Source: Antedon mediterranea (lineage: Eukaryota; Echinodermata; Crinoidea; Comatulida; Antedonidae). From it: a DNA stretch of 64,000 nt. Positions 5,901 through 8,900 of this stretch are shown here, piece by piece. The notes under the pieces are model-generated. The model did no database searches, had not been told where the DNA came from, and worked only from the letters and a program-made list of their open reading frames with translations. A program made the translations under genes and the position numbers. The stretch spans positions 64,501 to 128,500 of the forward strand of contig NC_092676.1 in NCBI RefSeq assembly GCF_964355755.1, written 5' to 3'. Numbering within the stretch: the stretch's first letter is position 1; the number at the start of each line of letters is the position of its first letter.

Positions 5901-8900
5901 ATTAAGCATTAATATGAAGTTAGTATGTACAGAATAATGTGTAGTTGTTCAAAGAAGATGCTTATGTAAGTATTAGAAAGTACTATATTATTATTAATCA
6001 ATGATATTAATAAATTGTGGTTAGTAACATCAACATTAGTAACATGCTTATAAATAATACATTATTGGCATCAGGTATGGCATGTTTATATCTTTAATTC
6101 AGGTCATAATTGTTGTCATCAATAATAGAATGGTCATTAGTAATACTAAAATGAAGGTGGTAAAACAGATTAATTTCACATATTACGAAAATCTTTGAAA
6201 TTGTATTAGTAAGAATTTTTCAAAAAATGTTTGAAAGAATGTCCAAAACAGAGAACGTTTGAAAGAATGTCCAAAACAGAGAACGTTTCAATTATTAAAG
6301 AATGTCCAAAACAGAGAAGGTTTCAATTATTTACATGAAATTATCAGGTTCTAAGGCATATTGTATTCTACATAATGCTTATGCTTGTTTGACCACCTGG
6401 GGGCGCCATAACCTTCAATGCAGTACGGTCTTTGATGTTATCATCTGTTTGAGCACCTGATAGGAAATATGTATGGATGGTGATATCAAGATAAATAGAC
6501 ATACATAACAATGAAAACAGGAGAAGGAGTGATCATGCCACATAAGTACAAACATGCCATTTACAATCACCTTATTTTGACAATAATTCATTTTTCAGAG
6601 ACAGGGTTTTTTCAGTTTCCTTCTTTTATGGTTTCAGATACAAATTTGTGTTTAATTATACAGTAATTATATAAGTATAATAAAAAGTGTTTGACATGAA
6701 TAATCCTACCTGATAGACTGAATCCAGAAGCATGCAAATCACGATGGCCATGGCGTGTTGCTGTTCTATCTTGGTTTTGTGTTTGCTTTGGAGCAGCTTT
6801 GCTAACACTATTAGCAGGTGCATTAGCAGAGTTCCAAACAGGTCCATCATAGGCTTCACGATCTACACCCACTGGTACTCTCACCTATTAAATAATCACA
6901 GAAAGCATAATGTATTGATCTAACCACAGAGGAATCTAACATACTAATAATGCTATAAACTTTACATATCTATGTATATTCACTTTATAAAGATCTTTCA
7001 TTAATCACAGTTTACAATATACCAAAGATTGTTCTAAGCTTTAGTAAAATACTTTTTGTTATACAAACTACATCACACAACATAGTCACTTCCCGATTAT
7101 GTTGTGTTAATATGGACATACAAAATGTTCCGGCAGCAGTAGTTACCAAGTTAAAATACTAAAAAAAAAGAAAATCAACTAACTTTATCCCTGATTAGGA
7201 TCTTGGCATATGCTTCAGGTGCGTGGACAGGTCGTGAAACAAATCGGCCAGCACCTTGTGTAACATGAAGCTGTAAAACAACAACAACAGTGTTAATATC
7301 AAATATGAGTTTAGTTTAGCTTAGTTAGTCTATAATTATAGAAATACAGTTAATAAAGAATACCTGCTCATCTTCCCACACAATTCTTCCATTGCTAATG
7401 GTTATGAGTGGCACTCCATGACAAACCATTCCTTCAAAGATATTCATAGTCACAGCCTATACAAAGAGAAAACATACTTAAAGTGTTAACAAAAGACTCA
7501 CGATGGTAAGTGTTGAAACAAAATTGACTTACATGATGGTAAGTGTTGAAACAAAATTGACTTACATGATGGTAAGTGTTGAAACAAAATTGACTTACAC
7601 GATGGTAAGTGTTGAAACAAAATTGACTTACATGATGGTGAGTGTTAAAGCAAAATTGACTTACACGATGGTAAGTGTTGAAACAAAATTGACTTACACG
7701 ATGGTAAGTGTTGAAACAAAATTGACTTACATGATGGTGAGTGTTGAAACAAAATTGACTTACATGATGGTAAGTGTTGAAACAAAATTGACTTACATGA
7801 TGGTGAGTGTTGAAACAAAATTGACTTACACGATGGTAAGTGTTGAAACAAAATTGACTTACACGATGGTGAGTGTTGAAACAAAATTGACTTACATGAT
7901 GGTGAGTGTTGAAGCAAAATTGACTTACATGATGGTGAGTGTTGAAGCAAAATTGACTTACATGATGGTGAGTGTTAAAGCAAAATTTACTTACATGATG
8001 GTGAGTGTTAAGCAAAATTGACTTACATGATGGTGAGTGTTGAAGCAAAATTGACTTACATGATGGTGAGTGATAAAGCAAAATTGACTTACATGATGGT
8101 GAGTGTTGAAGCAAAATTGACTTACATGATGGTGAGTGTTGAAGCAAAATTGACTTACATGATGGTGAGTGTTGAAGCAAAATTGACTTACATGATGGTG
8201 AGTGTTAAAGCAAAATTGACTTACATGATGGTGAGTGTTAAAGCAAAATTGACTTACATGATGGTGAGTGTTGAAGCAAAATTGACTTACATGATGGTGA
8301 GTGTTAAAGCAAAATTGACTTACATGATGGTGAGTGTTAAAGCAAAATTGACTTACACGATAGTGAGTGTTGAAACAAAATTGACTTACATGATGGCGAG
8401 TGTTAAAGCAAAATTGACTTACATGATGGTGAGTGTTAAAGCAAAATTGACTTACACGATGGTAAGTGTTGAAACAAAATTGACTTACATGGTGAGTGTG
8501 GAAACAAAATTGACTTACATGATGGTGAGTGTTGAAACAAAATTGACTTACATGATGGTGAGTGTTAAAGCAAAATTGACTTACATGATGGTGAGTGTTG
8601 AAGCAAAATTGACTTACACGATGGTAAGTGTTGAAACAAAATTGACTTACATGATGGTGAGTGTTGAAACAAAATTGATTTACATGATGGTGAATGTTGA
8701 AACAAAATTGACTTACATGATGGTGAATGTTGAAACAAAATTGACTTACATGATGGTGAGTGTTGAAACAAAATTGACTTACATGATGATGAGTGTCCTT
8801 TGAAATTGTTCTGGTTGCATTTGGATCCCAAATTACAAGGTCAGCATCTGAACCAACTTGAATTACTCCCTGAAATAATACAATTAAATACAAAATATTC

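What the first reader, a model, noticed from the sequence alone, without database searches (positions are those of the whole stretch)
7500..8795. A splice donor amplified about 39 times: a minisatellite of consecutive in-frame 5' splice sites
The 33-bp unit is the end of a real CRMP exon plus its GTAAGT donor. Nearly every copy keeps the donor. The unit is a multiple of three with no stop, so using donor n would add n x 11 residues ([11 protein letters not shown]) without breaking the protein; this holds for about the first 23 copies, until a 1-nt deletion near 8010. The array could act as a U1 snRNP sink, a splicing-fidelity hazard or a source of variable-length isoforms. A His-rich repeat insert would sit on the enzyme surface close to the C-terminal region.
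Basis: partly seen in the sequence, partly recalled or inferred. Interest (0 to 1): 0.9.

Follow-up and report, generated by a model that had tools for sequence, protein, structure and literature searches.

The report
Splice-donor minisatellite in CRMP gene intron
The junction between one exon and its intron in a dihydropyrimidinase/CRMP gene has been copied head-to-tail about 39 times, giving a row of nearly identical splice donors; this is a large example of a known, probably neutral kind of repeat ("mirage" minisatellite) rather than a new device.

Summary
On the minus strand, the last 12 nt of an 87-nt DHP/CRMP exon (8869-8783) plus the first 21 nt of its intron are repeated in 33-bp units from 8782 to about 7500: 39 donors, 38 of them GTAAGT, plus a diverged 40th. 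Donors 1-24 keep the frame; a 1-nt deletion in unit 24 shifts the rest. Nothing shows that the extra donors are used or selected: changes among units fall inside and outside the donor, and between synonymous and nonsynonymous sites, as expected without constraint. The donors are among the gene's weaker U1 matches (-5.5 kcal/mol); the other strand carries 35 stronger ones (-11). The insertion point lies in a segment aligned without gaps in at least 34 of 41 solved relatives. A second, independent exon-donor duplication lies in a kinase gene of the same window. The precise precedent is the "mirage" minisatellite of lancelet genes, reported not to disturb splicing; the functional precedent is human IFI6, where repeat donors are used. 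Most likely: neutral intron growth by tandem duplication at 5-bp microhomology, with normal splicing at donor 1. New member of a known kind, unusually long and uniform.

The parts
8783..8869 (-). 87-nt exon [29 protein letters not shown] of the DHP/CRMP gene, phase 0 at both ends; its last 12 nt (ACTCATCATCAT) are the exonic part of the repeat unit
7500..8782 (-). array of 39 tandem 5' splice sites in about 33-bp units (GTAAGTCAATTTTGYTTYAACACTCACCATCAT)
8777..8782 (-). donor 1, the genuine 5' splice site (CAT|GTAAGT)
8489..8518 (-). unit 9, 30 bp (3-nt deletion, frame kept)
7995..8026 (-). unit 24, 32 bp (1-nt deletion; donors 25-39 out of frame)
7457..7501 (-). 45-nt tail: diverged 40th donor (GTGAGT) and remnant of the unit, then TTTTCTCTTTGTATAG acceptor; end of the original short intron
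7364..7456 (-). next exon, [31 protein letters not shown]
58927..58990 (-). second, independent exon-donor duplication: exon end ATGTCCTACCTCAGTGAGATGAAG + GT repeated once in a tyrosine-kinase gene, donors AAG|GTATGT at 58959 and 58933

Best explanation
A mirage-type minisatellite. A short ancestral intron (about 76 nt or less) suffered tandem duplication of its 5' exon-intron junction between two copies of ACACT, one in the exon (GGACACTCAT) and one in the intron (AACACTT). The 33-bp unit then expanded and was homogenised by slippage or unequal exchange to about 39 copies. Splicing probably goes almost always from donor 1 (8782) to the acceptor at 7457, and the rest of the array is removed as intron. 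The donors look conserved because the units are young and homogenised, not because each is used. Shown: the array, its exon-intron origin, the frame, the lack of detectable excess constraint. Inferred: microhomology as the cause, neutrality, and donor-1 usage.
For: Unit = 12 nt exon + 21 nt intron. ACACT is present on both sides, and the tail aligns to the unit as a diverged copy. Removing the extra units leaves an intron of about 76 nt, in line with neighbours of 87-117 nt. Kinds of change: 1 of 10 in the donor hexamer (expected 1.8, P=0.43) and 2 of 10 synonymous (expected 2.7, P=0.79). A second junction duplication in the same window is bounded by ATGT microhomology, so such events recur here. 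Genome-wide, close triplets of GTAAGT are not more frequent than the reversed motif (8031 v 9463 matches). At least 34 of 41 solved relatives align without any gap across the insertion point. Lancelet mirages do not generate aberrant mRNAs in Adh, TnC and globin genes.
Against: Donor 1 is not better than the others: same 9-mer as most copies and no greater predicted accessibility, so what would single it out is not shown in the sequence. In IFI6, repeat donors are used. No RNA data and no second individual or species were available. The neutrality tests have low power (10 kinds of change).
Confidence: 0.78

Rival explanations
1. Ladder of isoforms as in human IFI6: donors 2-24 are used at an appreciable level and add n x 11 residues ([11 protein letters not shown]) in front of the NIFEG motif, while later donors give frameshifted, unstable mRNAs.
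For: 38 of 39 donors are intact GTAAGT, 24 are in frame without stops; donor 1 is not distinguished in strength or accessibility; IFI6 uses two downstream repeat units as donors (PMC4526556).
Against: No sign of protein-level or donor-level constraint; the site is length-invariant in most solved relatives; lancelet mirages do not give aberrant mRNAs.
Confidence: 0.14
2. U1 snRNP sink or splicing-rate regulator: the row of donors titrates U1 or delays splicing of this intron.
For: 39 donors in 1.28 kb.
Against: Each is a weak match (-5.5 kcal/mol, against about -7 for the typical other donor of the gene); one pre-mRNA offers few sites compared with cellular U1 (general knowledge); the stronger row (35 ATG|GTRAGT at about -11) is on the non-coding strand.
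Confidence: 0.03
3. Recursive splicing or new microexons inside the array, as a step toward intron gain.
For: Lancelet mirages have been proposed as a source of new introns; human boundary repeats can form new introns.
Against: Units have CAT|GTAAGT or CGT|GTAAGT, not AG|GTAAGT, so there is no ratchet (combined acceptor-donor) point; the only AG in a unit lies inside the donor itself.
Confidence: 0.02
4. Assembly artefact: copy number inflated or mis-assembled.
For: Only one assembly was seen; tandem arrays are error-prone.
Against: Units carry distinct variants in a non-repeating order, and the genome shows many such arrays.
Confidence: 0.03

Closest known systems
Mirage minisatellites of lancelets (Adh3, troponin C, globins BflGb6/BflGb9; similar repeats in PGBD5); PMC3087553, PMC3902484
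   [quoted passage not shown] copies carry splice signals and lie within the intron; Adh3 units of 10-72 bp include this size
Human IFI6 (6-16) minisatellite, Turri et al. 1995, cited in PMC4526556
   Same: Minisatellite at an exon end supplying many splice donors
   Different: There, two downstream repeat units are used as donors, giving three mRNAs; here use is unknown
Internal tandem repeats at exon-intron boundaries in human segmental duplications, PMC2812944
   Same: About 30-bp units at exon-intron boundaries, changing intron structure
   Different: Those are compared between paralogues with RNA support; about 4 copies on average

Membership tests
Mirage minisatellite | Tandem repeat unit includes both exonic and intronic sequence of one boundary | tested here: met
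   12 nt exon + 21 nt intron per unit
Mirage minisatellite | Copies carry the splice signal (AG/GT) | tested here: met
   38 of 39 GTAAGT, 1 GTAAAT
Mirage minisatellite | Regular splicing undisturbed | not testable with these tools
   No RNA data
Mirage minisatellite | Copy number unstable between haplotypes | not testable with these tools
   One assembly only
IFI6-type multi-donor minisatellite | Intact donor consensus in repeats starting at an exon's own donor | tested here: met
IFI6-type multi-donor minisatellite | Transcripts use more than one repeat donor | not testable with these tools
   No RNA data
Coding tandem repeat under selection | Excess of synonymous change or depletion of change in donors | tested here: not met
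   syn 2/10 (P=0.79), donor 1/10 (P=0.43); low power with 10 kinds of change
Recursive splice site array | AG immediately before GTAAGT | tested here: not met
   CAT or CGT precedes every donor

The most novel reading that the evidence does not exclude
A natural competition among 39 nearly identical donors yields a graded ladder of DHP/CRMP isoforms with 1-23 copies of a His-rich 11-residue insert, with copy number differing between individuals.
Probability: 0.1. Interest if true: 0.7.

Novelty: new member of a known kind. Interest (0 to 1): 0.36.

Why it matters
It is a natural version of the classic experiment with tandem identical 5' splice sites, carried to 39 copies with donor strength held constant. 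If only donor 1 is used, exon context or order of synthesis must decide, since neither U1 complementarity nor predicted accessibility tells donor 1 from the rest. With the second duplication in the same window it suggests that boundary-spanning minisatellites recur in this genome.

Tried and rejected
(1) Other arrays of the unit in the genome: none found. (2) Genome-wide excess of close GTAAGT triplets: none against the reversed motif, though the counts are inflated by a few long arrays. (3) RNA masking: the copies with ACTTACC can fold the donor into a 6-bp hairpin (-3.6 kcal/mol), but donor 1 is no more accessible than the average copy, so masking does not explain choice. (4) Recursive splicing: no AG before the donors. 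(5) Thirty P450 exon loci as a sample for other mirages: no array within 40 bp of a match edge, but match edges are not always exon edges. (7) Turri et al. 1995 itself is not held; known through citing papers. (8) The group of the organism could not be established.

Full report
Observation. TRF finds the array at 7502-8796 (period 33, 39.4 copies, 94% matches). Read on the minus strand it starts exactly at the end of an 87-nt exon, 8869-8783, [29 protein letters not shown]. Every unit is GTAAGTCAATTTTGYTTYAACACTCACCATCAT: 21 nt of intron start followed by a copy of the last 12 nt of the exon (ACTCATCATCAT in the exon, mostly ACTCACCATCAT in the copies). Thirty-nine donors follow each other from 8782 to 7532; 38 are GTAAGT and copy 4 is GTAAAT. 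Unit 9 lacks 3 nt and unit 24 lacks 1 nt. A diverged partial copy (GTGAGTCTTTTGTTAACACT) and an acceptor TTTTCTCTTTGTATAG finish the 1326-nt intron at 7457. Donors 1-24 are in frame and open; donors 25-39 are out of frame, with a stop from donor 26 on.

Gene. tblastn with a human CRMP2 sequence written from memory places the array in a gene on the minus strand from about 13198 to 2895. The array-bearing exon and its neighbours match human dihydropyrimidinase (2vr2, E 3.7e-48) slightly better than the CRMPs. No other locus in the genome matched this part of the protein (exon-by-exon search, limited sensitivity).

Origin. The exon has GGACACTCAT and the intron tail AACACTT; the 33-bp unit is the distance from one ACACT to the other, which suggests duplication at microhomology (inference from sequence). 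Without the extra units the intron would be about 76 nt, like the 87-117-nt introns beside it. A second example lies in the same window: in a tyrosine-kinase gene (PF07714, E 1.1e-16) the exon end ATGTCCTACCTCAGTGAGATGAAG plus GT is duplicated, giving AAG|GTATGT at 58959 and again at 58933, bounded by ATGT on both sides. Use of the second donor there would shift the frame. So boundary duplication has happened at least twice here; 30 P450 exon loci gave none near match edges.

Is it functional? Ten kinds of base change exist among the 37 full-length units. One lies in the donor hexamer (1.8 expected; P=0.43), two are synonymous (2.7 expected; P=0.79) and none makes a stop (76% likely by chance). 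Power is low, but nothing points to selection on donors or codons; homogenisation is enough to explain why nearly every copy keeps the donor. Most donors pair with U1 at -5.5 kcal/mol, weaker than most other donors of the gene. The opposite strand carries 35 ATG|GTRAGT sites at about -11, which shows that rows of donors come free with such a repeat. Insertions would fall between THHH and AVTMNIFEG; by comparing aligned lengths, at least 34 of 41 solved relatives show no gap over the whole stretch, so an 11-residue insert is more likely harmful than useful (inference).

Which donor is used? Donor 1 has the same 9-mer as most copies and average predicted accessibility. If donor 1 is preferred, exon context (87-nt exon with its own acceptor) or order of synthesis must decide; that is inference. 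Precedents go both ways: in lancelets mirages in Adh, TnC and globin genes do not generate aberrant mRNAs (PMC3087553; PMC3902484), while in human IFI6 two downstream repeat units are used as donors (PMC4526556).

Verdict. Real, correctly read, and striking in copy number and uniformity, but a member of a described kind, and most likely neutral.

Noticed in passing
11360-11240 and 10958-10838 (minus): Two 121-nt alternative exons of the same phase: [40 protein letters not shown] and [40 protein letters not shown]. 121 is not a multiple of 3, so they should be mutually exclusive. The first keeps the His of VHVMS as in human dihydropyrimidinase, the second has Arg, so splicing may switch one gene between enzyme and CRMP-like product, as reported for fly CRMP (PMC7954323), perhaps at another metal ligand.
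   Followed up: partly
6469-6371 and 2980-2895 (minus): Two alternative last exons, [29 protein letters not shown] and [28 protein letters not shown], both like the CRMP C-terminus, with a 28-copy 46-bp array (3748-5026) between them.
   Followed up: partly
58927-58990 (minus): Second exon-donor duplication, in a tyrosine-kinase gene.
   Followed up: yes
7500-8800 (plus): The array reads as about 35 strong donors (ATG|GTGAGT or ATG|GTAAGT) on the opposite strand.
   Followed up: yes
37281-38408 and 39751-40969: Two arrays of the same 97-bp unit in opposite orientation, about 1.3 kb apart; likewise 14-bp arrays at 55030-55187 and 55507-55664.
   Followed up: no
22058-22400 (minus): Five 70-bp units ending in CCAGAAG|GTACAT downstream of an ORF at 22699-23277; may be another boundary repeat.
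   Followed up: no
G000:C3:19.6-25.1 Mb: More than 15 similar myosin-head exon matches (profile positions 342-408) spread over 5.5 Mb, suggesting a large muscle-myosin gene expansion.
   Followed up: no
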